Shown here: positions 8,755 through 19,480 of the stretch, piece by piece
Numbering within the stretch: the stretch's first letter is position 1
Layout of the letters: each line of letters starts with the position of its first letter
Origin: Conexibacter sp. CPCC 205762
GTDB lineage: Bacteria; Actinomycetota; Thermoleophilia; Solirubrobacterales; Solirubrobacteraceae
Length of the DNA: 64,000 bases
Direction of reading: 5' to 3'
NCBI RefSeq assembly: GCF_030646155.1
Contig: NZ_JAUTDN010000010.1
Coordinates: forward strand, 1 to 64,000
Program-made: the position numbers and the translations under genes
Notes under the pieces: generated by a model
The model's database searches: none
Seen by the model: only the letters and a program-made list of their open reading frames with translations
Told to the model about the DNA's origin: nothing

Positions 8755-10017
8755 TCAGCGGCTGGAGAGGCGCTCGCGCAGGGCGAGCACGCGCACGGCC
8801 GACTCCGCGACACGGGCGCGGATCGCCGGGTCGGCCTTCGCGGCGGCGATCACGGCTCTGCGCGCGAGCGGGAACGAGCCGGGGCCCGTCAGCAGCAGCA
8901 GGTCGGCGCCAGCGCCGAGCGAGCGGACCGCGGCGGCGCCGACGTCACCGTCGCCGGGGGTCGCGGCGTCGACCGCCTCGGCCTCCAGCGAGTCGGTCAT
9001 CACGACGCCGTCGAAGCCGAGCTGGTCGCGCAGCAGGCCGGTGACGATCGCGCGCGACTGCGAGGCGATCCGCTCGCCGTCGATGCGCGGGTAGCGGGCG
9101 TGGCCGACCATCACGATCCCGGCGCCGGCCTGCAGCGCGGCGCGGTAGGGGACGAGGTCGATCGCGTCGAGCTGTCTCGTCGTGCGGCCGATCGCGGCCG
9201 AGCCGAAGTCGGTGTTCTGCGTCGCGCCGCCGACGCCGGGGAAGTGCTTCGGCGTCGGCTCGATCCCGGCCGCCTTGTAGGCCGACACTGCCGCTCTGAC
9301 CGAGGCCGCGACCGCGCTCGCACCGCCCGGGTAGGCGCGGCTGGCCATGAACGAGCCGGGCGTGCCGCCGGCGACGTCGGCGACCGGCCCGAGCGTGACG
9401 TTGACGCCGACCCGCTTCAGCGCCTGCGCGGTCGTGCGCGCGCTGGCGCGGGCGGCGTTCGCTGTCGGCTGGCCCGCCTGGCCGTGCTCGGGCGGGGCGA
9501 ACTTCAGCGTGCGGATGTCGCCGCCCTCCTGGTCGAGCGAGACGATCGCGTCGCCGCCGCCGGCACGCTGGATCGCGCGCGTCATCCTGCGCACCGCGTC
9601 GGCCGACGGCGCGTTGCCGCCGAACAGGATCACGCCCGACGTTCTGCCGGCCCGCAGCGCGTCGGTCACGTAGCTCGGCGCGCTCGTGCCGGAGAAGGAG
9701 ATGATCAGCAGCTGCCCGACCTGCCGCTCCAGCGACATCCGCCGCACGCGCGCGCCAATCGCGTCGGCCGACGCATCCCCACCGGCCGCCGTTCTGCCTG
9801 CCGCCTTCCCGCCAGGCGACCTCGTCGCGCCGGGCGCGGTGCCGGTGCCACGCCCCGCGGCCGGCCCGGTCGCCTGCGCCCGCGGCGCCGCCTCCCCGCC
9901 CCCGCTCGACGCCCCCACCGCGACGCCGACGACGAGCGCGAGCAGCGCGGCCGCCAGCAGCGCCAGCCGGCGCCGCCGGATCGCGGTCGGCCCATGGGTG
10001 GAACGGCGGCGCGGCAT
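8755..10017 (-). CDS. Membrane-anchored GH3 glycosidase, NagZ-like, lacking the usual catalytic His
   Basis: A 420-residue GH3-family protein. A basic N-terminus and one hydrophobic segment (about 18-38) suggest export or an anchor. An Ala/Gly/Thr linker follows, then the barrel (about 90-415). Landmarks are SLDQEGGDI (160-168), KHFPG (257-261) and VVMTDSL with the predicted nucleophile Asp342. In NagZ the KHFPG loop continues with a DSH-type motif whose His is the acid/base. Here the loop reads GVGGATQNTDFG with no His, so activity may be altered or absent. N-acetyl-hexosaminidase action on peptidoglycan is the family's usual role. The ATG at 10017 is chosen. An upstream ATG at 10074 would add 19 residues. 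Confidence 0.75.
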   Translation of the reverse strand: MPRRRSTHGPTAIRRRRLALLAAALLALVVGVAVGASSGGGEAAPRAQATGPAAGRGTGTAPGATRSPGGKAAGRTAAGGDASADAIGARVRRMSLERQVGQLLIISFSGTSAPSYVTDALRAGRTSGVILFGGNAPSADAVRRMTRAIQRAGGGDAIVSLDQEGGDIRTLKFAPPEHGQAGQPTANAARASARTTAQALKRVGVNVTLGPVADVAGGTPGSFMASRAYPGGASAVAASVRAAVSAYKAAGIEPTPKHFPGVGGATQNTDFGSAAIGRTTRQLDAIDLVPYRAALQAGAGIVMVGHARYPRIDGERIASQSRAIVTGLLRDQLGFDGVVMTDSLEAEAVDAATPGDGDVGAAAVRSLGAGADLLLLTGPGSFPLARRAVIAAAKADPAIRARVAESAVRVLALRERLSSR

Positions 10018-10113
10018 TCCCCAGGACCCTATGACGTTGCACAGAGAGATGCGGTTGAGGCGGGCGCGCGTCATCACGATCGCGCGGCGGCGGAGCGGGC
10101 ACAATGTGGAGGC

Positions 10114-10665
10114 ATGAGCGTCGAATCCGTGGACGACGAGCCGCAGCGGCCCGACGAGGAGGGCGCGCCGCCGCCTGGCGTCGGGGCCGCGCCGCGGCGG
10201 GAGCTGACGGAGATCTCGTCGCGCAACGTGCTGGTCGCGGTCGACGGGACGCCGGAGGCGTGGGACGCGGTCGGGCTGGGGGTGCAGATCGTGCGCGCCT
10301 CGCGCGGGCGGCTGACGCTGCTGACGGTCGTCGTGCCGCCGCCGGCGTGGACGCAGGTCGGCCTCTTCGCGCCGCCGGCCGACGGTGACGCCGAGCGCGC
10401 GGCCGTCGAGCGGCTGCGCGAGCTGGCCGACGCGATCCCCGACGACATCCCCGTCACGACCCAGCTGCTGCACGGCGACGCCGCCCACCTGATCGCCCAG
10501 CACGCCGAGCAGGGCAATCACGATCTCGTCGTGCTCGCCGCGCACGAGCACGGGCCGATCGGCGCCGCGATCGAGTCGGTCCAGCGGCGGCTGCTGAAGT
10601 GCACGCGCGTGCCGGTGCTGGCGATCCGCAGGCCGCACCCGGCCGACGAGCCCCGGCAGCAGTAG
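10114..10665 (+). CDS. UspA-type universal stress protein with degenerate nucleotide motif
   Basis: A 183-residue cytoplasmic protein. A charged Pro/Glu-rich lead (about 1-35) precedes one UspA domain beginning NVLVAVDGTPEAWDAVGLGV. In ATP-binding Usp proteins the C-terminal strand carries G-x2-G-x9-G-S/T. Here it reads HGPIGAAIESVQRRLL, with Glu where Gly is expected, so ATP binding is doubtful. The start lies just after GGAGG with unusually short spacing. It is divergent from the GH3 gene and followed by a strong hairpin. Confidence 0.75.
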   Translation: MSVESVDDEPQRPDEEGAPPPGVGAAPRRELTEISSRNVLVAVDGTPEAWDAVGLGVQIVRASRGRLTLLTVVVPPPAWTQVGLFAPPADGDAERAAVERLRELADAIPDDIPVTTQLLHGDAAHLIAQHAEQGNHDLVVLAAHEHGPIGAAIESVQRRLLKCTRVPVLAIRRPHPADEPRQQ

Positions 10666-10690
10666 GTCGCGGCCCCTGGGCGCCGCGACC
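10665..10690 (+). terminator. Hairpin after the universal stress gene
   Basis: GGTCGCGGC (10665-10673) pairs perfectly with GCCGCGACC (10682-10690) around an 8-base loop, starting within the stop codon. A C-rich rather than U-rich tail follows. Its position right after the gene favours termination. Confidence 0.5.
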
Positions 10691-10747
10691 CCCGACCCCC
10701 ACCCCCTGGACGCCAAAGTTTGGGGCCTCCGCTTTGGGGTCTCCTCG

Positions 10748-10903
10748 ATGCGCGGACGCGGGCGGTCCCCGATGCTCCTGCTCATGGACCGACCGACGCC
10801 CCTGACAGTGACGCTCCAGGGAGAGCCCGCCGACCTCCGCTCCCGCACCGAGCTGGCCGCCCTCTTCGCGCGCACGACCGGCGGAAGTGGCCAGGAAGTC
10901 TAG
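10748..10903 (+). CDS. Possible small protein or gene remnant before the AAA ATPase
   Basis: An open frame of 51 codons with mostly G or C at third positions. It reads MRGRGRSPMLLLMDRP, then LTVTLQGEPADLRSRTELAA and ends TTGGSGQEV. I do not recognise it. The stop lies 51 bases before the ATPase start and 16 bases before its inverted repeat, so it could be a leader gene, a partner or a leftover. A second start at 10772 is possible. Codon choice is the only support. Confidence 0.25.
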   Translation: MRGRGRSPMLLLMDRPTPLTVTLQGEPADLRSRTELAALFARTTGGSGQEV

Positions 10904-10913
10904 ATATATGTGG

Positions 10914-10956
10914 TTGTTATATGGAGGTTTGGCACATAAGATCAACACCTCCATAT
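10914..10956 (+). promoter_or_regulatory. Promoter and inverted repeat of the AAA ATPase gene
   Basis: TTGTTA (10914-10919) and TAAGAT (10937-10942), 17 bases apart, make a plausible promoter. A perfect 10-bp inverted repeat, ATATGGAGGT (10919-10928) and ACCTCCATAT (10947-10956), spans it. The left arm touches the -35 element and the right arm covers the likely transcript start and the ATG. Its AT content contrasts with the region, and it looks like an operator. Confidence 0.5.
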
Positions 10957-12139
10957 GGATGCCGCGACCAACCCCTATACGCCAGGTGCCGGCACCCAGC
11001 CGCGAGCGCTCTCCGGGCGTGAGCGAGAGCTGGACGGCTTCCGGGTTCTCCGCGCGCGCCTGACCCACGGCCTGCCGGAGCGCGGGATCGTGCTCTGCGG
11101 TCTGCGCGGGATGGGCAAGACGGTGCTGTTGCGGGAGATGGCTCGCGACGCGCGCGACGAGGGATGGCGCGTGTCCTTCGTCGAGATGCGCAGGGGGACC
11201 GACCTCCGTGACGCGCTCACGGCGGCAGTGCTGGAGCAGCTCGCCGGCCTCAGCATCCGCGAGCGCGCGCTCGGCGCCTTCTCGCGCACGATGGGATTGG
11301 TCCGCGCGCTGCGGGCGACGATCGCACCGGAGATCCAGATCGACGTCGACGCGACCGACCTGCTGACGGTCGGCCGCTCGCTCGAAGCCGACCTCGGCGA
11401 GCTGCTCGCGCGGCTGGGAGCGCTCGCCCGCGATCAGGGGATCGGCGTCGCCTTCGTGATCGACGAGCTGCAGGAGCTGGACGCCGAGGGCCTGGCCGCG
11501 TTGTGCGCGGCGATGCACCGCGTCGGTCAGGAGGAGCTGCCGATCGCGCTGGCTGCCGCCGGCCTGCCGAGCCTCCCCGGTCTGCTCGCGGAGGCGAAGT
11601 CGTATGCCGAGCGGCTGTTCGCCTACCCACAGGTCGGACTGCTGCCGGACGACGCCGCCCGCCGTGCGATCGTCGAGCCGCCGCGCAAGGTGCTCGGCGA
11701 CGACGCGCCGGCGATCGACGACGATGCGGTCGAGCGGATGATCGCCTTCGCGGGCGGCTATCCGATGCTGCTGCAGGCCATCGGCAAACATGCCTGGAAC
11801 CGCGCGACCGGCAACGCCATCGGCTTGGCCGACGTCGTCGCGGGCGAGCAGGACGCCTTCGACGACCTCTCTCGCGAGCTGTTCCTCGCCCGCTGGCAGC
11901 GCGCGACGCCGCGCGAGCGCGACTACCTGCTGGCGGTCGCCGGCGCGGGCGGCTCATGCAGCTCGGCGGAGGCGGCGCGCACGGCGAACTTCGGCCCGAC
12001 GACCGCCGCCAGCGTCCAGCGCAACACGTTGATCGCGAAAGGCCTGCTGTGGGCTCCTGAGCGCGGCCGTGTGGCGTTCACGATGCCGCTGTTCGAACGC
12101 TTCGTGCTCGCACGCCACGAGCACGAGCCTGCGCACTGA
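10955..12139 (+). CDS. Stand-alone AAA ATPase
   Basis: A 394-residue P-loop ATPase of the group starting NPYTPGAGTQPRALSGRERE. Walker A is GLRGMGKT (49-56) and Walker B is VAFVIDEL with Asp170-Glu171. The region after about 300 (RATPRERDYLLAVAGAG onward) looks like a winged helix, which could bind DNA. No membrane segment is seen. The targets of such ATPases are mostly unknown. It is a single gene, and the inverted repeat over its promoter suggests that it or a similar protein controls its own expression. Base composition is slightly lower in GC than neighbouring genes, and the leader much lower. Confidence 0.75.
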   Translation: MDAATNPYTPGAGTQPRALSGRERELDGFRVLRARLTHGLPERGIVLCGLRGMGKTVLLREMARDARDEGWRVSFVEMRRGTDLRDALTAAVLEQLAGLSIRERALGAFSRTMGLVRALRATIAPEIQIDVDATDLLTVGRSLEADLGELLARLGALARDQGIGVAFVIDELQELDAEGLAALCAAMHRVGQEELPIALAAAGLPSLPGLLAEAKSYAERLFAYPQVGLLPDDAARRAIVEPPRKVLGDDAPAIDDDAVERMIAFAGGYPMLLQAIGKHAWNRATGNAIGLADVVAGEQDAFDDLSRELFLARWQRATPRERDYLLAVAGAGGSCSSAEAARTANFGPTTAASVQRNTLIAKGLLWAPERGRVAFTMPLFERFVLARHEHEPAH

Positions 12140-12146
12140 AGCCCTC

Positions 12147-13079
12147 TCAGCCGCCGACGACCCGGGCGCTGATGCGCTCGATCAGCTGCGGGAAGGAGAG
12201 GCCGGCGTGCTCGGCGGCGAGCGGGGTCGGGCCGGTCTCGGTCAGGCCGGGGATCGTGTTGATCTCCAGCACCCACGGGGTCTCGTCTTCGAGGCGGATG
12301 TCGACGCGGGCGAAGTCGCGGCAGCCGGCGGCGCGGTAGGCGTCGGCGGCGACCGCTCTGACGCGCGCGTCGACGGCGTCGGAGAGGCCGGCAAGACGGA
12401 CCTCGGAGGAGCCGATCTCGTAGTGGGCCTGGAACGAGTAGTACTCGTCGGCCATCACGATCTCGACCGGCGGCAGCGGCTCGGGCGCGTCGGCGGGCCC
12501 GAGCACGGTCACGGCCAGCTCGCGGCCGGGCACGAACCGCTCCAGCAGGACGCGGTCGTCGTAGCTCATCGCGCCGAGCACGGCGCCGCCGAGCTGGGCC
12601 CGCTCCTGCACCACGCTGAGGCCGAACGAGGAGCCCTGTCGCGCCGGCTTGACGACCATCCGGCCGTCGAACTGCTGCCACAGCGCGTCGAGCGTCTTGC
12701 CGGCGCCGTAGTCGGCGAACGCCTGCTTCGTGAACGAGTGCCACTGCGGCGTCGCCACGCCGCGCAGCTCGCAGAGGCTCTTGAAGGTGTGCTTGTCGAG
12801 GCAGATCGCGGAGGCGAGCGCGTCGGAGCCGGTGTACGGCACCTGCAGGATCTCCAGCAGGTCCTGGACCGTGCCGTCCTCGCCGCCGACGCCGTGCAGG
12901 GCGATGAAGACGAAGTCCGGCTGCGCCCGCTGGACGACGTCGACGAAGTCGGCCCCGACGTCGACCACGTCGACCGCGTGGCCGAGCGTCCGCAGCGCCT
13001 TCGCCGCCTGCTGGCCCGAGCGGGTGCTGACCTCGCGCTCCAGCGAGCGGCCCCCGTAGGCGACGAGCGCGCGCGCCAT
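12147..13079 (-). CDS. ATP-grasp ligase, D-Ala-D-Ala-ligase-like (short form)
   Basis: A 310-residue cytoplasmic ATP-grasp enzyme with most Ddl landmarks. These include GGRSLEREVS with Glu14, KPARQGSSFGLSVV, the Tyr region ADEYYSFQAHYE and DIRLEDETPWVLEINTIPG for metal binding. After NTIPGLT, normal Ddl enzymes carry a Ser-containing motif like SLVP. Here the sequence is ETGPTPLAA, so the second amino-acid site may differ. It is the downstream member of a two-ligase operon, three bases after the larger paralogue. The substrates could be D-Ala plus D-Ala or another small amino acid. Confidence 0.8.
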   Translation of the reverse strand: MARALVAYGGRSLEREVSTRSGQQAAKALRTLGHAVDVVDVGADFVDVVQRAQPDFVFIALHGVGGEDGTVQDLLEILQVPYTGSDALASAICLDKHTFKSLCELRGVATPQWHSFTKQAFADYGAGKTLDALWQQFDGRMVVKPARQGSSFGLSVVQERAQLGGAVLGAMSYDDRVLLERFVPGRELAVTVLGPADAPEPLPPVEIVMADEYYSFQAHYEIGSSEVRLAGLSDAVDARVRAVAADAYRAAGCRDFARVDIRLEDETPWVLEINTIPGLTETGPTPLAAEHAGLSFPQLIERISARVVGG

Positions 13080-13081
13080 CG

Positions 13082-14338
13082 CTACGCCGCCGACTTCGCG
13101 TGGCGGTCGATCAGCGCGGAGGCGAAGCTGCGGGTCGTCGAGCGCTCCTCGCGCGCCTCCGCCAGGCCGATCGCGAGCAGCTCGTCGAGCAGGTCGGGGA
13201 AGGCCAGCCCGCGCGGCTCGAACAGATAGAAGGCGAACGAGCCCGGGACCGTGTTCGGCTCGTTGACGCAGATCCGCTCCGGTCTGCCGTCCTGCGCGGG
13301 CAGCACGAAGAAGTCGTAGCGGACGACGCCCGCGACGCGCAGCGCGCGGTGGGCCTTCTCGGCCTCCGCGCGGACCCGCTCGCGCAGCCCCGGGTCGACG
13401 TCGGCGGGGATGATGCGGTCGGCCGAGGCCATCCCGGCGCCGGACTCGCCGGAGCCGCCGGCCTTGCCGCCCCCGCCCTTCGCGCCACCGCCCTTGGCTC
13501 CGCCGGAGCCGTCCTTGCCGCCGCCGGCCGACAGGTACTTGTCCTCGAACGTGAGCCCGGCCTCGCTGCCGAGCGGCCGCTCGACCTCGGAGACGCGCAG
13601 CTCGCCGCCGGGGCGGCCGAGGACGGCGCAGTTCAGCTCCGTCGCGCCGGTCGCGAACGGCTCGACGATCGCCTGGCGGTCCAGCTCGAAGGCCAGCTCC
13701 AGCGCCTCCTCGACCTCGGCCGCGCTCTCGCAGCGGGCGACGCCGATCGAGGAGCCGAGCGTCGCCGGCTTGACGACGACCGGCGGCGGGAAGTCGCTCG
13801 CGACGATCGCCAGCACGCCGGCGCGGTCCTGCTCCCAGGCGCCGCGCTCGATGCGGCGGTGCGGCAGCACCTCGAGGCCGCCGGCCTGCAGCACCGTCTT
13901 GGCGAGGTGCTTGTCCATCCCGACCGCGAACGCCGCGACGCCGCGGCCGGCGTGCGGGACGCCGGCCAGCTCGAGCGCGCCGAGCAGCGCGCCGTCCTCG
14001 CCGCCGGTGCCGTGGATCGCGTTCAGCACGACCGAGATCGGCAGCGCCTTGTCGCCCCGCAGGCGCGAGGTCGAGGGCTCGAAGAAGGGGCCGTCGGCGG
14101 CGCCGAGGCGCAGCTCCAGCGGTCGCGCGCCGCGCGGTGGCGACTGCGTGAAGGCGCTCACGTCGCGCAGCTCCTCGCCGGTCCACCAGCGGCCGTCCTT
14201 GCCGACGTAGAGCGGGATCACCGTGTGGCGCTCGGCCAGCACGGCCATCGCCTGCTGCGCGGTGATGATCGAGACGTCGTGCTCGACCGACGGGCCGCCG
14301 AAGACGACGCCGACGGTCTGTCCGGAGGGGAGAGGCAT
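13082..14338 (-). CDS. ATP-grasp ligase, D-Ala-D-Ala-ligase-like with Gly/Lys insertion
   Basis: A 418-residue Ddl-family enzyme. Seen are FGGPSVEHDVS, KPATLGSSIGVARC and TFEDKYLS. The C-terminal metal-binding motif NEPNTVPGSFAFYLFEPRG differs from housekeeping Ddl endings and is closer to accessory ligases. Residues about 271-303 are a low-complexity insertion of Gly, Lys, Ser and Ala placed right after the substrate Tyr, probably a flexible loop. The ATG lies near GGAGGGGAGAGG. It is divergent from the hydrolase and Mur-ligase genes with only 28 bases between starts, so the four genes probably share regulation. Confidence 0.8.
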   Translation of the reverse strand: MPLPSGQTVGVVFGGPSVEHDVSIITAQQAMAVLAERHTVIPLYVGKDGRWWTGEELRDVSAFTQSPPRGARPLELRLGAADGPFFEPSTSRLRGDKALPISVVLNAIHGTGGEDGALLGALELAGVPHAGRGVAAFAVGMDKHLAKTVLQAGGLEVLPHRRIERGAWEQDRAGVLAIVASDFPPPVVVKPATLGSSIGVARCESAAEVEEALELAFELDRQAIVEPFATGATELNCAVLGRPGGELRVSEVERPLGSEAGLTFEDKYLSAGGGKDGSGGAKGGGAKGGGGKAGGSGESGAGMASADRIIPADVDPGLRERVRAEAEKAHRALRVAGVVRYDFFVLPAQDGRPERICVNEPNTVPGSFAFYLFEPRGLAFPDLLDELLAIGLAEAREERSTTRSFASALIDRHAKSAA

Positions 14339-14350
14339 GGGGCGGAAGGG

Positions 14351-14369
14351 TATCGTTCGCCCCTCCGTG
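14351..14369 (+). promoter_or_regulatory. Probable -10 element for a near-leaderless hydrolase transcript
   Basis: TATCGT at 14351-14356 lies 10 bases before the GTG of the hydrolase gene, and no Shine-Dalgarno sequence sits between. This is the pattern of leaderless actinobacterial transcripts. The -35 would lie inside the divergent ligase gene's start region. Confidence 0.3.
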
Positions 14370-15176
14370 AACGCGACCGCCGACACCACCACGCTCACCG
14401 TCGACGGCCTCCGCGTCCGTCTCCTGCACGTCAGACCCGCCGGGATCGAGAACCCCGCGAAGGTGCTCGTGCTGCACGGCTGGGGCGCGTCGGTCGACGC
14501 CGTCGGCTCGATCGTCGCAGGCCTGCGCGACACGGTCGAGCTGGTCGCCTTCGACCTGCCGGGGATGGGCGAGTCGCAGATGGTCCCGGCCGCGTGGGGC
14601 AACCGCGACTACGCCGCCTTCACGATCAGGCTCGCCGACGCCGTCGGCTTCGACCGCTTCGCGCTCGTCGGCCACTCGCGCGGCGCCGCCGTCTCGCTCG
14701 TGCTCGCCTCCGACCCGGCCACCAGCGGCCGCGTCGAGCGGATGGTGCTGACCGGCGCCGCCGGCATCAAGCCGAGACGGCCGGCCTCCTACTACATGAA
14801 GGTCGGCTCGGCGAAGGCCGGCCGCGTGATCGGCGCCGTCGGCGGCAAGCCGGGCAAGAGCCTGCAGCAGAAGATCCGCGGCAAGGCCGCCTCGGCCGAC
14901 TGGCTGGCGGCCCCCGAGGAGCTGCGCGGGACGCTGCGCAACGTGCTCGCCGACGATCTCTCGCCGCTGCTGCCGCAGGTCGACGCCCCGACGCTGCTGA
15001 TCTGGGGTCCCGACGACGACTCCACCCCGCTCTGGATGGGCGAGCAGATGGAGCGCGAGATCCCCGGCGCGGCGCTGATCGTGCTGAGAAGCGGCGGCCA
15101 CTTCGCGTACGCCGAGCGGGCCGGCGAGTTCAACGTGATCGCCTCCCATTTCCTGACGCAGGGAGGCAGACGATGA
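14367..15176 (+). CDS. Alpha/beta hydrolase
   Basis: A 269-residue alpha/beta-fold hydrolase. Motifs are VLVLHGWGASVDAVGS (oxyanion region), FDLPGMGESQM, the nucleophile elbow GHSRGAAVS with Ser, an acid region LLIWGPDDDSTPLWMG and a terminal His in SGGHFAYAERAGEFN. The catalytic triad is therefore intact. The GTG start gives a normal family N-terminus (MNATADTTTLTVDGLRVRLL). Its stop overlaps the next gene's start as ATGA, so it is almost certainly co-translated with the Mur-ligase-like protein and divergent from the two ligases. It may release or transfer an acyl or peptidyl group. Confidence 0.8.
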   Translation: MNATADTTTLTVDGLRVRLLHVRPAGIENPAKVLVLHGWGASVDAVGSIVAGLRDTVELVAFDLPGMGESQMVPAAWGNRDYAAFTIRLADAVGFDRFALVGHSRGAAVSLVLASDPATSGRVERMVLTGAAGIKPRRPASYYMKVGSAKAGRVIGAVGGKPGKSLQQKIRGKAASADWLAAPEELRGTLRNVLADDLSPLLPQVDAPTLLIWGPDDDSTPLWMGEQMEREIPGAALIVLRSGGHFAYAERAGEFNVIASHFLTQGGRR

Positions 15177-16804
15177 CCGTCCTCACGAGCGTGCTGATCG
15201 CGGTCGCGGCGCTCGTCGCGCTCGGCACCGCCTCGCACATGCTGCTGCACGTCTTCCAGCAGGAGCATTACGAGGCGCGCCGGCTCTACCTGTGGGTCAG
15301 CCAGGCGTATGGGGTGCGGTTGGCGCTGCCGGAGGCGGGCCTGCTGTTCGTCGGCGCGCTCGCGTCGGCGCTCGCGGGCGGCTCTGAGCCGGCGCTCGGC
15401 GTGATCCTCGCGATCGTGCTGGTGGCGCTGACGGCCCGCTACGCGCAGCGGGTCTGGACGCGCGAGCAGATCAAGCCGCTCGTCTTCACGCCGCGCGCCA
15501 GACGGCTGTTCGGCCTCCAGCTCGCGCTCGGCGCGCTGCTGCTGGCGATCGTCGTCGCGCTCGGCGGCAGCGGCGAGTTCGCCCCCGCCGCCACCGGCGC
15601 CGTCGGCGCGCTGCTGCTGCTGCTCGCGCCGTGGCTGCTGGGCGGCGTCGTCAACCGGCTGCTGAGACCGGTGCAGCAGGCCGACAACCGCCGCTTCGTG
15701 CGCAGAGCCGAGCAGCGGCTGCGCGAGGTCAGACCGCTCGTCGTCGGCATCACCGGCTCCTACGGCAAGACGACGACGAAGGCGTGCGTGGCGGCGGTGC
15801 TCGACCTGCTCGGCCCGTCGTATCCGACGCCGGCGTCGTTCAACTCGCAGCTCGGCGTCGTGCGCGCGATCAACGAGGGACTGCAGCCGACGCACCAGTC
15901 GTTCGTCGTCGAGATGGGCGCCTATCGCCGCGGCGACGTGCAGGACCTCTGCGACCTCGTCCACCCGCGCGCCGGCGTGCTGACGGCGATCGGCCCGGCC
16001 CACCTGGAGCGGTTCGGCTCGCTCGACGTGACCGAGCAGGCGAAGGGCGAGCTGGCCGACGCGATCCCCGCCGAGGGCCTCTTCGTCACGCGCGCCGACG
16101 ACGAGCGCTGCCTGCGCGTCGCGCGCACCCGCGCCGCCGGCCGCGTGCTGCTGTTCGCGCCCGCGCCGCATCCCGAGGCCGACCTGTGGGCCGAGGGGAT
16201 CCGCCTGCAGGACGGCCGCTCGATCTTCACCGTCGTCGTCAGAGCCGGCGTCGCCGGGGACGACGAGCAGCGCGCCGAGGTGCGCGCGAGACTGCTCGGC
16301 GAGCACAACGTCGCCAACCTGCTGGCGGCCGCCGCCGTCGGGCTCGGCGAGGGGCTGGCGCTGGCCGACGTCGCGCGCGCGCTCGGCAAGGTCCCGCCGC
16401 CCGACCACCGGCTCGCGCCGATCGTCAACAGAGCAGCCGGCGTCGTCGTGATCGACGACTCCTACAACGCCAACCCGGAGGGCGCCGCCGCCGCGCTCGG
16501 CGTGCTGCGCGACCATCCCGCGACGCGCCGCCTGCTGGTGACGCCGGGGATGGTCGAGCTGGGCGAGCGCGAGCGCGAGGAGAACCGCCGCCTCGGCGAG
16601 CTGGCCGCCGCCGTCGCCGACGTCGCCGTGCTGATCGGCCCGCGCGGCGAGGACGTGCGCGCCGGGATGCTCGCCGCCGGCGCGCGTGAGGAGCAGCTGC
16701 ACCACTTCCCCGACGGGCCGAGCGCGCACGCGAAGGTCGCCGAGCTGACGCGCGCCGGCGACGTCGTGCTGTTCGAGAACGACCTGCCCGACGTCTACGC
16801 CTAG
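15173..16804 (+). CDS. Membrane-anchored Mur-ligase-family enzyme (MurF-like core)
   Basis: A 543-residue protein. Residues 1-165 contain about five hydrophobic segments (4-24, 52-70, 75-92, 114-132, 140-165). The Mur ligase ATP-binding domain begins near 185 with P-loop GSYGKTTTK (195-203), followed by MGAYRRGDVQDL and GPAHLERFGS. A C-terminal domain has VVVIDDSYNANPEGAAAALG. MurF joins D-Ala-D-Ala to UDP-MurNAc-tripeptide, but here the usual N-terminal UDP-substrate domain is replaced by membrane helices, so the acceptor may be lipid-linked or different. This layout recalls the poly-gamma-glutamate ligase CapB/PgsB. It is coupled to the hydrolase by an ATGA overlap. Confidence 0.8.
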   Translation: MTVLTSVLIAVAALVALGTASHMLLHVFQQEHYEARRLYLWVSQAYGVRLALPEAGLLFVGALASALAGGSEPALGVILAIVLVALTARYAQRVWTREQIKPLVFTPRARRLFGLQLALGALLLAIVVALGGSGEFAPAATGAVGALLLLLAPWLLGGVVNRLLRPVQQADNRRFVRRAEQRLREVRPLVVGITGSYGKTTTKACVAAVLDLLGPSYPTPASFNSQLGVVRAINEGLQPTHQSFVVEMGAYRRGDVQDLCDLVHPRAGVLTAIGPAHLERFGSLDVTEQAKGELADAIPAEGLFVTRADDERCLRVARTRAAGRVLLFAPAPHPEADLWAEGIRLQDGRSIFTVVVRAGVAGDDEQRAEVRARLLGEHNVANLLAAAAVGLGEGLALADVARALGKVPPPDHRLAPIVNRAAGVVVIDDSYNANPEGAAAALGVLRDHPATRRLLVTPGMVELGEREREENRRLGELAAAVADVAVLIGPRGEDVRAGMLAAGAREEQLHHFPDGPSAHAKVAELTRAGDVVLFENDLPDVYA

Positions 16805-18046: not shown

Positions 18047-19480
18047 ATGGCCCGGCGCTTCTTCAACCGCGACGAGGAGCTGGCCGCGCTCGACCGGCGC
18101 TGGGCGTCGGACCGCGGCGAGTTCCTGATCGTCTACGGTCGCCGGCGCGTCGGCAAGAGCCGCCTCATCACGCACTGGGGCGAGCAGCGCCGCCACCTCT
18201 ACATAGAGGCGACCGCGGGCAGCGAGAGCGACCAGCTCGCCGACGTCAGCATCGAGCTGGCGCGCGTCACCGGCCGCTCGCTCCACGCCGAGCAGCCGCT
18301 GACGAGCTGGCGCGCCGTCTTCGCCGCCTTCGACGAGCTGCTCGACGACGGCCCGATCGCGATCACGCTCGACGAGTTCCAGTTCGTCGCGCGCGGCAAC
18401 CAGGAGATCGGCTCGCTGATCAACCGCTTCGTCAGCAGACACCAGGACGATCCGCGGCTGCTGCTGGTCATCTCCGGCAGCGACGTCTCCTTCTTCGAGC
18501 GCGAGCTGCTCGGCTATGCCGCCGTCACCTACGGCCGCCGCACCGGCTCGCTTCACCTGCGCCCGTTCGGCTGCTTCGAGATCGCCCCGTTCGTGCCCGA
18601 CTGGTCCGTCGCCGACCAGATCCGCGCCTGGGCGGTCTGGGGCGGGATGCCGTTCTACCTCGCCGAGATCGACCCGGCGCTCGACCTCGGCGAGAACATC
18701 CTCCGCACGATCCTCGCGCCGGACGCGCTGCTGCGCAACGAGCCCGCGTTCCTGTTCGCGCAGGAGTCGCGCATCCGCGAGCGCGACGGGTACATCTCCG
18801 CGCTGCGGGCGATCGCGAGCGGGCAGACGCGGCTGGTCGAGATCGCCGAGCGGGTCCAGCGCTCCCCGACCGACACCCGCGGCTTCCTCGAGACGCTGGA
18901 GCAGATGAACCTCGTCGAGCGGCAGCGACCGGTCGGAAGACGGGTCGGCAAGAAGGTCTCGTACGCGATCACCGACCCGTTCCTGCGCTTCTGGTTCCGC
19001 TTCGTCGCCCCCTTCGAGAGCCGCCTCTACAGCGAGGAGGCCGCCCGCCGGCACCTGCGCGAGACGATCCTGCCCGCGCTCGACCAGTTCGTCTCGCGCG
19101 ACGCGTTCGAGGAGGTCTGCCAGCGCTGGGCGCTGGAGCACGTGCCGGGCGCGACCGAGGTCGGGCGCTGGTGGGGCTCCAAGCGCGTGCGCACGCCCGA
19201 GGGCCTGCGCAACCGCCAGTACGAGGCCGACGTCGCCGCGCTCGACCCCGACGGACGGCTCGTCGCGCTCGGCTCGTGCAAGTGGAGCGACGGCGACCAC
19301 GACGCCGGCGAGCTGGACAAGCTCGAGACCGTCGCGACGCTGATGGGCGCCGACACGGCCCCGCCGCTGTACTTCTTCGACCGCAGCGGCTTCTCGCCGC
19401 GGCTGCGCGAGCTCGCGCGCGAGCGCGACGACGTGCGGCTCGTCACGACCGCCGAGCTCGCGACCGGCTCCGGCGGCTAG
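18047..19480 (+). CDS. ATPase with C-terminal DUF234 nuclease-like domain
   Basis: A 477-residue protein of the archaeal-type ATPase/DUF234 class. Walker A is GRRRVGKS (31-38) and Walker B is AITLDEF with Asp109-Glu110. A sensor-like segment LLLVISGSDVSFFEREL follows. A winged helix is likely at about 245-310 (ending GKKVSYAITDPFLRFW). The C-terminus carries a pattern like PD-(D/E)xK nucleases: Glu355, YEADVAAL with Asp395, and GSCKWS with Lys412. The Lys is kept, so nuclease activity is possible. Proteins of this class are thought to act on DNA, but their role is unsettled. It is a single gene, ending four bases inside the convergent secreted protein gene. Confidence 0.8.
   Translation: MARRFFNRDEELAALDRRWASDRGEFLIVYGRRRVGKSRLITHWGEQRRHLYIEATAGSESDQLADVSIELARVTGRSLHAEQPLTSWRAVFAAFDELLDDGPIAITLDEFQFVARGNQEIGSLINRFVSRHQDDPRLLLVISGSDVSFFERELLGYAAVTYGRRTGSLHLRPFGCFEIAPFVPDWSVADQIRAWAVWGGMPFYLAEIDPALDLGENILRTILAPDALLRNEPAFLFAQESRIRERDGYISALRAIASGQTRLVEIAERVQRSPTDTRGFLETLEQMNLVERQRPVGRRVGKKVSYAITDPFLRFWFRFVAPFESRLYSEEAARRHLRETILPALDQFVSRDAFEEVCQRWALEHVPGATEVGRWWGSKRVRTPEGLRNRQYEADVAALDPDGRLVALGSCKWSDGDHDAGELDKLETVATLMGADTAPPLYFFDRSGFSPRLRELARERDDVRLVTTAELATGSGG

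What the first reader, a model, noticed from the sequence alone, without database searches (positions are those of the whole stretch)
12147..16804. Four-gene module: two Ddl-like ligases, a hydrolase and a membrane-fused Mur ligase
Seen: two adjacent ATP-grasp ligases with atypical C-terminal motifs (NTIPGLTETGPTP and NTVPGSFAFYLF), divergent by 28 bases from a coupled alpha/beta hydrolase and Mur-ligase pair. The Mur ligase has about five helices where MurE/MurF carry their UDP-substrate domain. Known: Ddl and MurF make and attach D-Ala-D-Ala in peptidoglycan. Inference: this is a separate membrane-bound system that makes a dipeptide or depsipeptide and joins it to a lipid-linked or surface acceptor, with the hydrolase editing or transferring it.
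Basis: partly seen in the sequence, partly recalled or inferred. Interest (0 to 1): 0.8.

Follow-up and report, generated by a model that had tools for sequence, protein, structure and literature searches.

The report
Membrane-bound MurF replaces normal MurF
The four genes look like this bacterium's own way of finishing the cell-wall peptide, using a membrane-embedded version of the enzyme MurF that seems to have replaced the usual one here and in a number of other bacteria.

Summary
In detail: two Ddl-type ligases, an alpha/beta hydrolase and a five-helix membrane-fused MurF-like ligase lie at 12147-16804. The inference of a system separate from peptidoglycan fails its own test. No other Ddl or MurF was found in this (90.9% complete) genome, and murE abuts mraY with no murF. 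The conserved core is hydrolase, TM-MurF and DdlB (P0002), found together in several phyla. In two Poribacteria it fills the murF slot: murE-hydrolase-TM-MurF-DdlB-mraY. In a draw of 199 Bacillota genomes, 12 lack canonical MurF, and all 12 carry TM-MurF beside DdlB. TM-MurF is a sister clade of MurF. It lacks the UDP-binding domain, keeps the catalytic domains, and its invariant Thr/Arg residues fall on the predicted cytosolic membrane face. Best reading: a membrane-bound housekeeping MurF/Ddl branch, probably acting on lipid-linked MurNAc-tripeptide, as MurT/GatD acts on lipid II. The MurF role rests on genomics. The lipid-linked acceptor, the dipeptide's identity and the hydrolase's role are inferred. 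The paper searches I ran found no description of this system.

The parts
12147..13079 (-). DdlA (P0001), 310 aa, DdlB-type D-Ala-D-Ala ligase paralogue; the Ser281-Leu282 pair (E. coli numbering) is replaced by Gly-Pro. Seen beside the module only in this genus.
   Evidence: Translation; TIGR01205 253.5 bits, over cut-off 245.65; PDB alignment to E. coli DdlB; five relatives in the same bacterial family have TSLLP or TSYLP.
13082..14338 (-). DdlB (P0002), 418 aa from its ATG: module-type Ddl with E-x-N-T-x-P-G-S-x-x-x-Y-L-[WF]; lid Lys-Tyr kept; glycine-rich lid insert.
   Evidence: (TIGR01205 202.1 bits, under cut-off 245.65).
14339..14366 (.). 28-base divergent intergenic gap between the DdlB ATG and the hydrolase GTG.
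   Evidence: Sequence read.
14367..15176 (+). Alpha/beta hydrolase (P0003; the ORF can also start at 14337); Ser114-Asp227-His255 triad conserved in 64 of 64 sequences aligned.
15173..16804 (+). TM-MurF (P0004), 543 aa: membrane-fused Mur ligase, the only MurF-type enzyme found in the genome.
   Evidence: (TIGR01143 217.4 bits from residue 179, cut-off 288.6).
15173..15667 (+). N-terminal membrane domain of TM-MurF (residues 1-165): helices 2-30, 52-68, 73-95, 107-131, 137-163, with conserved Q29, Y33, W41, T106, R108, R111 on the predicted cytosolic face.
15749..16339 (+). Mur ligase central ATPase domain (P-loop TGSYGKTT).
16421..16774 (+). Mur ligase C-terminal domain; the protein ends in ENDLPDVYA where canonical MurF has a VK[GA]S-type segment.

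Best explanation
This is the genome's housekeeping D-alanyl-D-alanine branch of peptidoglycan synthesis in a membrane-bound form. DdlB (with DdlA beside it here) makes the dipeptide, and TM-MurF ligates it, using ATP, to the MurNAc-tripeptide made by MurC/D/E. Because the UDP-binding domain is replaced by a five-helix membrane domain with invariant Thr/Arg residues at the predicted cytosolic surface, the acceptor is most likely the undecaprenyl-diphosphate-linked MurNAc-tripeptide (lipid I or II). MurF would then act after MraY instead of before it. The hydrolase, overlapping TM-MurF by 4 bases, probably trims or proofreads the dipeptide or the precursor. Shown by computation: no other MurF/Ddl found, murF missing from its usual place, conserved module, domain anatomy. 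Inferred: catalytic function, lipid-linked acceptor (I put this step at about 0.6), dipeptide identity and hydrolase role (weak). The confidence given is for the MurF/Ddl role, not for the lipid step.
For: (1) In this genome the only Ddl-type PF07478 matches are the two in the window; of nine rows, three are these two genes, and the six others look like carboxylase, CarB or PurD-type enzymes in the frames I read. The six Mur-ligase rows are MurE, MurC, a MurD-like, a MurT-like, a FolC-like protein and TM-MurF. (2) murE lies directly beside mraY, without murF, in 12 of 16 stretches examined (G000, G111 and ten others); congener G120 without the module has murE-murF-mraY. (3) Genus of 7: the 4 with the module lack a MurF of the family's own lineage, the 3 without it have one; the extra MurF of G122 and G123 sits in a vanHAX-type operon. 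(4) 22 of 24 Actinomycetota genomes tested (chosen from P0004 matches) have no canonical MurF over cut-off, and all 22 have the TM type. (5) 199 Bacillota genomes: 186 over cut-off, 13 not; 1 of the 13 is a canonical gene split over contigs and the 12 others all carry TM-MurF with DdlB adjacent. (6) MraY-model match in 37 of 37 module genomes tested, 34 over cut-off. (7) The module fills the murF slot in Poribacteria L146 and L183 and lies among mur genes in L186, L199, L202. (8) 41 TM-MurFs form one clade (SH-aLRT 99) beside 49 other MurFs (96), MurE outside. (9) No UDP domain, five helices, the ten best Foldseek hits are MurF structures. (10) MurT precedent: no N-terminal domain, substrate lipid II, and such a domain would likely clash with the membrane (passages of PMC6113224).
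Against: Genomes with both kinds exist: G117 has a canonical MurF lying between murE and mraY in L130, and the module in L119; 7 of 38 genomes have a canonical MurF over cut-off, and at least 6 Bacteroidales have another full-length, MurF-Alr-type match; so the module can also be an addition. G380 has a divergent MurF between murE and mraY that scored only 145.7 bits, so other divergent MurFs could lie below my E 1e-35 limit. Three of the 37 MraY matches (G355, G377, G381) are under the cut-off and may be other enzymes. The window's genome is 90.9% complete. TM-MurF lacks the canonical C-terminal motif (0 of 80) and DdlB lacks the Ser281-Leu282 loop, so its dipeptide may not be D-Ala-D-Ala. 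There is no biochemical evidence, and the acceptor is not shown. The hydrolase or DdlB is not near TM-MurF in some loci.
Confidence: 0.82

Rival explanations
1. TM-MurF is a MurF that still uses soluble UDP-MurNAc-tripeptide; the membrane helices only anchor it near MraY so that the product is channelled.
For: Same gene-replacement evidence as the best explanation; a MraY-model match in 37 of 37 genomes tested, 34 over cut-off.
Against: No domain able to bind uridine was found by Pfam, and the model has helices there. Invariant T106, R108, R111 and nearly invariant Q29, Y33 lie on the predicted cytosolic membrane face, which suggests a substrate site rather than a simple anchor.
Confidence: 0.3
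2. One reading: an extra system, separate from peptidoglycan, that puts a dipeptide or depsipeptide on another lipid or surface acceptor.
For: Genomes with both canonical MurF and the module exist; the residues that contact the end of D-Ala-D-Ala are changed in DdlB, and the MurF C-terminal motif is changed in TM-MurF.
Against: In the window genome and many others it is the only MurF and Ddl found; in some it lies inside the cell-wall gene cluster.
Confidence: 0.05
3. An intrinsic glycopeptide-resistance-type module: it makes an altered peptide end, with the hydrolase acting as the dipeptidase (VanX-like).
For: Altered acceptor-end residues; a Ddl-type ligase, a MurF and a hydrolase together resemble vanHAX-murF in content.
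Against: No VanH or VanX match in the window at E 1e-15; the hydrolase is a Ser-Asp-His alpha/beta hydrolase by Pfam; DdlB keeps the Lys-Tyr lid pair (60 of 61), which the VanA-type row does not have; G123 carries a separate vanHAX-type operon as well as its module.
Confidence: 0.1
4. Artefact: the missing murF and ddl are gaps in a draft assembly and the module is an accessory.
For: G000 is 90.86% complete in 116 contigs.
Against: The murE-mraY junction is intact and lacks murF in G000 and in 99%-complete G111; G111 also has just the two Ddls; the pattern repeats in 12 of 199 Bacillota.
Confidence: 0.03

Closest known systems
MurF (UDP-MurNAc-tripeptide--D-Ala-D-Ala ligase, TIGR01143)
   Same: Central ATPase domain, P-loop, C-terminal domain; best PDB sequence and Foldseek hits; sister clade; the module fills its genomic slot in two Poribacteria.
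   Different: N-terminal UDP-binding domain replaced by five membrane helices; P-loop TGS[FY]GKT; ends in ENDLPD where canonical MurF has VK[GA]S-type residues; below curated cut-off.
MurT/GatD lipid II amidase
   Same: Mur-ligase relative without the UDP-binding domain, acting on a lipid-linked precursor (PMC6113224, passages).
   Different: MurT works in a complex with GatD; this genome has a separate MurT-like protein (G000:C97, my reading); TM-MurF scores best as MurF.
Ddl (D-Ala-D-Ala ligase, TIGR01205)
   Same: Glu15, Ser150, Lys215-Tyr216, Arg255, Asn272, Gly276 equivalents kept in DdlB (60-61 of 61).
   Different: DdlB has a 4-residue deletion at the Ser281-Leu282 loop; DdlA has Gly-Pro there.
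vanHAX-murF glycopeptide-resistance operons
   Same: A Ddl-type ligase and a MurF encoded together.
   Different: No VanH or VanX match in the window; the module is the only MurF/Ddl set found in many genomes.
MurF-Alr fusion of Bacteroidales
   Same: Another unusual MurF architecture.
   Different: Keeps sequence of the UDP-domain kind before the P-loop; coexists with TM-MurF in the genomes seen.
Pseudomurein Mur ligases and CapB/PgsB
   Same: Mur-ligase superfamily enzymes of other pathways (recalled).
   Different: NCBIfam matches to pMurC, pMurD1 and pMurE are weak (37.5 bits or less) and no CapB/PgsB model is in the list.

Membership tests
MurF (TIGR01143) | Mur ligase central ATPase and C-terminal domains | tested here: met
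   PF08245 and PF02875 over cut-off; clade beside other MurFs, MurE outside.
MurF (TIGR01143) | N-terminal UDP-MurNAc-binding domain | tested here: not met
   Profile match starts at position 65; no PF01225; five helices instead.
MurF (TIGR01143) | Curated score cut-off 288.6 bits | tested here: not met
   217.4 bits.
MurF (TIGR01143) | C-terminal VK[GA]S-type motif seen in canonical MurF | tested here: not met
   K[GA]S[RY] in 34 of 34 MurFs of the window's class; K[GA][SAT] in 22 of 23 others, one not located; [KR]GS[RH] in 0 of 80 TM-MurFs.
MurF (TIGR01143) | Serves as the only MurF-type enzyme of a peptidoglycan-making cell | tested here: met
   genome-level only, no biochemistry.
[quoted passage not shown]
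   Needs enzymology.
Ddl (DdlB, P0002) | Catalytic residues equivalent to E. coli Glu15, Ser150, Lys215-Tyr216, Arg255, Asn272, Gly276 | tested here: met
   60-61 of 61 sequences; alignment.
Ddl (DdlB, P0002) | Ser281-Leu282 loop holding the carboxylate of the second D-Ala | tested here: not met
   4-residue deletion in 14 of 14 rows; role of Ser281 from PMC5717164 passages.
Ddl (DdlB, P0002) | TIGR01205 cut-off 245.65 bits | tested here: not met
   202.1 bits for P0002; 20 of 30 genomes have a match over it, many of these being the module's DdlB.
Ddl (DdlA, P0001) | TIGR01205 cut-off | tested here: met
   253.5 bits vs 245.65.
Ddl (DdlA, P0001) | Ser281-Leu282 | tested here: not met
   Gly-Pro in the window and three congeners; Ser-Leu or Ser-Tyr in five relatives without the module.
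vanHAX-type resistance operon | VanH and VanX genes at the locus | tested here: not met
   No match in the window at E 1e-15 with the VanH- and VanX-type proteins of G123.
MurT (lipid II amidation) | MurT-type C-terminal domain and GatD partner | tested here: not met
   C-terminal domain is PF02875; the four genes include no glutaminase by Pfam; a separate MurT-like protein exists.

The most novel reading that the evidence does not exclude
A number of bacteria finish the peptidoglycan stem on the lipid carrier, after MraY, and with a dipeptide whose last residue is not an ordinary D-Ala. DdlA, DdlB and TM-MurF all have changes at positions that in known enzymes hold (Ddl) or are thought to hold (MurF C-terminal domain) the end of D-Ala-D-Ala. 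The coupled hydrolase, an esterase-like fold, would then process that end. A changed fifth residue could escape routine muropeptide analysis because it is removed on cross-linking.
Probability: 0.2. Interest if true: 0.95.

Novelty: new variant of a known kind. Interest (0 to 1): 0.8.

Why it matters
MurF and Ddl are usually treated as universal, soluble enzymes working on UDP precursors, and as drug targets. A membrane-embedded sister family that stands in for MurF in several phyla, together with its own Ddl and a hydrolase, would mean that the textbook order (pentapeptide first, lipid carrier second) may not be universal. Genome annotation would have to look for this form before calling murF absent. 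The question is directly testable in named isolates such as Gracilibacillus massiliensis or Blastochloris sulfoviridis, whose genomes here show only the TM form.

Tried and rejected

Defence system: no PADLOC match beyond one weak 14.5-bit hit of the hydrolase.

DdlA as a core partner: rejected; among the loci it is beside the module only in the four module-bearing congeners, and it belongs to a Ddl paralogue family of the same bacterial family.

I first took G380 for a TM-only genome; one search showed a divergent MurF between murE and mraY, so I removed it. G377's cell-wall cluster was not found in the fetched stretch, so its TM-only status is weaker. G448 is a canonical MurF split over contigs and was not counted as TM-only. 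The query named canMurF was a wrongly picked frame (a MraY-MurD stretch); hits under that label were not used, and one search used the right protein. The first tree held canonical MurFs almost only from the window's class; I therefore fetched 20 more. A first rebuild dropped 11 of 23 added rows by a too strict pattern; one search keeps all 23. All trees are quick LG+G4 searches.

Paper searches gave no description of a membrane-fused MurF in their listings; 33 was swamped by the muscle protein MuRF1. One search found nothing; 102 led to PMC5717164 and PMC8698665. The hydrolase fold search was uninformative: phospholipase, esterases, valacyclovir hydrolase, C-C hydrolases.
Full report
Observation. 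The window has, on the minus strand, DdlA (P0001, 12147-13079) and DdlB (P0002, 13082-14338), and on the plus strand a hydrolase (P0003, most likely 14367-15176) whose stop codon overlaps the start of a Mur ligase (P0004, 15173-16804). Pfam gives P0004 the central and C-terminal Mur domains but no N-terminal domain. NCBIfam's best match is murF, 217.4 bits from residue 179 on, under the cut-off of 288.6. The AlphaFold model (66 sequences, pLDDT 92.3, pTM 0.89) shows membrane-length helices at 2-30, 52-68, 73-95, 107-131 and 137-163 before the Mur domains. Foldseek's ten best hits are MurF structures, with 366-385 alignment columns for the 543-residue model.

The window's genome. The genome (6.1 Mb, 116 contigs, 90.9% complete) has six Mur-ligase matches: MurE and MurC on contig 64, a MurD-like, a MurT-like and a FolC-like protein, and P0004 (MurE has NCBIfam support, the other names are my reading of the sequence). 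Nine PF07478 rows are P0001, two pieces of P0002, and six proteins that, in the frames I read, look like carboxylases, CarB or PurD-like enzymes. The murF model at E 1e-25 finds only P0004. In the cell-wall cluster murE and mraY are adjacent with no murF.

Relatives. In a draw of 119 genomes of the class, the TM type (profile start near 61-65) appears among the listed rows in G000, G111 and G117 only; 118 of 119 have a match and 102 of 119 one over the cut-off (the row list was cut at the weak end). Of the seven genomes of the genus, G000 and G111 have only the TM type, G122 and G123 have it plus one other MurF, and G119 (77% complete), G120 and G121 have only canonical MurF. The other MurF of G123 follows VanH-, VanA- and VanX-type genes and the same arrangement is in G122. 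In the tree these two MurFs do not group with the MurF of G119-G121, which groups with that of other genera of the family. So in all four module-bearing congeners the family's own MurF is gone. van clusters with murF in Solirubrobacterales have been reported (PMC8698665, passages seen).

Other Actinomycetota. A draw of 246 genomes of the phylum searched with P0004 gave 76 with a match at E 1e-40, many of them matched over the Mur domains only. I tested 24 of the matching genomes with the murF model: 22 have the TM type and no match over the cut-off; 2 (G181, G310) are canonical. Ddl was tested in 24 genomes, partly the same: 23 of 24 have a match, G188 none at E 1e-13. Nineteen of these 24 carry the TM type; in 17 of the 19 a Ddl match lies within a few kb of TM-MurF on the same contig, in G324 it is on another contig, in G188 none was found.

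Other phyla. All 80 have the P-loop TGS[FY]GK, for which the search selected, and 2-5 hydrophobic segments upstream of it. By record title they come from Bacillota, Bacteroidota, Pseudomonadota, Balneolota, Poribacteria, Omnitrophota, Chloroflexota, Acidobacteriota, Spirochaetota, Synergistota and Actinomycetota. One search counts the hydrolase upstream on the same strand in 59 of 80 (one of them 7.3 kb away) and DdlB downstream on the same strand in 55 of 80. These are lower bounds, because my ORF picking missed some that tblastn shows. Some misses are contig ends; others (for example Balneolaceae L159 and L206) have neither gene in the 16 kb stretch fetched.

Is it the only MurF? The murF model was run at E 1e-35 on 38 of those genomes. 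Seven have a canonical match over the cut-off. Six (G352, G356, G361, G364, G366, G378) have another full-length match in frames of 826-860 aa; I read five of the Bacteroidales MurF-Alr-type proteins, including that of G359. G370 has a MurF-like fragment, and G380 a divergent MurF in place. That leaves 22 of 38 with the TM type only, by my reading; the second matches of G350, G363 and G365 stop at profile position 322-332 as MurE's do and were not read. The Ddl model was run on 30 genomes including these 22: 18 of 22 have exactly one match, 15 of those within a few kb of TM-MurF on the same contig; G350, G374 and G375 have two; G351 has none.

A less selected sample. Because those genomes were chosen by similarity, I also drew 199 Bacillota genomes around G368, asking for completeness of at least 95 (G368 and G365 come from the earlier set). 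All 199 have a murF-family match, 186 over the cut-off. Of the 13 others, G448 is a canonical gene split over two contigs. The remaining 12 all have the TM type (2-5 hydrophobic segments, TGS[FY]GKT), all 12 with DdlB adjacent and 11 of 12 with the hydrolase, the twelfth being near a contig edge.

Peptidoglycan context. The MraY model matched in 37 of 37 module-bearing genomes tested, 34 over the cut-off; the weak ones are G355, G377 and G381. Of 16 stretches examined, 12 have murE directly beside mraY without murF (G000, G111, G368, G351, G384, G275, G197, G324, G373, G367, G124, G251); G120 is the canonical control, G354 has the module in between, G380 has a divergent MurF, and G377 showed no cluster. 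In Poribacteria L146 and L183 (L146 is the G354 locus) the order is murE-hydrolase-TM-MurF-DdlB-mraY, then murG (and murC in L183). In L202 it is murC-hydrolase-TM-MurF-DdlB-murE-mraY. In L186 and L199 the module lies between ftsZ and murC/murG. This is the strongest evidence for a role in peptidoglycan.

Family. A quick LG+G4 tree of the Mur domains puts 41 TM-MurFs in one clade (SH-aLRT 99) and 49 other MurFs (44 canonical, 5 MurF-Alr) in another (96), with 6 MurE outside (100); one row, L245 of G380, is long (a first tree with 24 canonical rows agreed). TM-MurFs end in ENDLPD-x-[YF] (67 of 80 by the pattern, close variants in the other 13), and 0 of 80 have [KR]GS[RH] there. At that place 34 of 34 MurFs of the window's class have K[GA]S[RY], and 22 of 23 other MurFs have K[GA][SAT], one not located. 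In the membrane domain T106, R108, R111 are invariant in 66 of 66 sequences, Q29, Y33 and P166 are conserved in 65, and a Lys in 62 stands where the window protein has Ile100 (followed by Lys101). By the model, with the Mur domains taken as cytosolic, these lie at the cytosolic ends of helices.

Mechanism. The passages of PMC6113224 I read say that MurT lacks the UDP-binding domain found in MurE and MurF, that it works on lipid II, and that such a domain would be unnecessary and would probably clash with the membrane, because the diphosphate may mark where the lipid leaves the membrane. TM-MurF has a membrane domain in that position with invariant basic and hydroxyl residues at the predicted cytosolic face. 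I therefore infer a lipid-linked MurNAc-tripeptide acceptor, at about 0.6; anchoring with a soluble acceptor is the main rival. DdlB keeps the equivalents of Glu15, Ser150, Lys215-Tyr216, Arg255, Asn272 and Gly276 (60-61 of 61) but has a four-residue deletion at the Ser281-Leu282 loop (14 of 14 rows). In E. coli DdlB Ser281 holds the carboxylate of the second D-Ala and Tyr216 contacts its NH (PMC5717164 passages). DdlA has Gly-Pro there in the window and in its three module-bearing congeners, while five relatives from genomes without the module have Ser-Leu or Ser-Tyr. PMC11915815 (passage) says the C-terminal domain of Mur ligases binds the incoming amino acid, which is why the changed end of TM-MurF may matter. 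This matching set of changes is why I keep the altered-dipeptide reading open at 0.2. The hydrolase has a complete Ser-Asp-His triad in 64 of 64 sequences plus invariant Asp188; its fold resembles a membrane phospholipase, esterases and valacyclovir hydrolase among others, which does not settle a substrate.

Limits. All function is inferred from sequence, gene order and gene loss. The 'TM-only' calls rest on models with E-value limits and on drafts or MAGs in many cases. The literature search covers only the open-licence library and the searches named in Tried and rejected; of the papers cited I saw passages only.

Noticed in passing
L128:10030-15536 (G123) and L129:8544-12570 (G122): vanH-vanA(D-Ala-D-Lac type)-vanX-murF operon, in G123 followed two genes on by a vanY-like gene, in genomes of the window's genus that also carry the TM-MurF module.
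   Followed up: partly
L252-L256 (Bacteroidales genomes): MurF-Alr-type proteins in module-bearing Bacteroidales have a P-loop TGS[KR]GKT and lack the usual YNANP motif (YTSD, FASD, FDST and the like); the MurF half may be degenerate. Not compared with Bacteroidales lacking the module.
   Followed up: partly
window 12147-13079; L094, L109, L110, L111, L113: DdlA belongs to a Ddl paralogue family of the same bacterial family; Ser-Leu changed to Gly-Pro in the four module-bearing congeners but not in the five relatives read.
   Followed up: partly
window about 13430-13525: Glycine-rich low-complexity insert in the DdlB lid region, longer in this genus than in most relatives.
   Followed up: no
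window 8755-10875 (-): ORF whose C-terminal half looks like a NagZ-type glycoside hydrolase family 3 enzyme (by eye, DQEGG motif), a possible cell-wall recycling gene near the module.
   Followed up: no
window 10955-12139 (+) and 18047-19480 (+): Two ATPases with Walker A motifs (by eye) on either side of the module region.
   Followed up: no
L168, L186, L188, L193, L199: In these loci (Alphaproteobacteria and a Micavibrio record) DdlB lies upstream on the opposite strand, as in the window, rather than downstream of TM-MurF.
   Followed up: no
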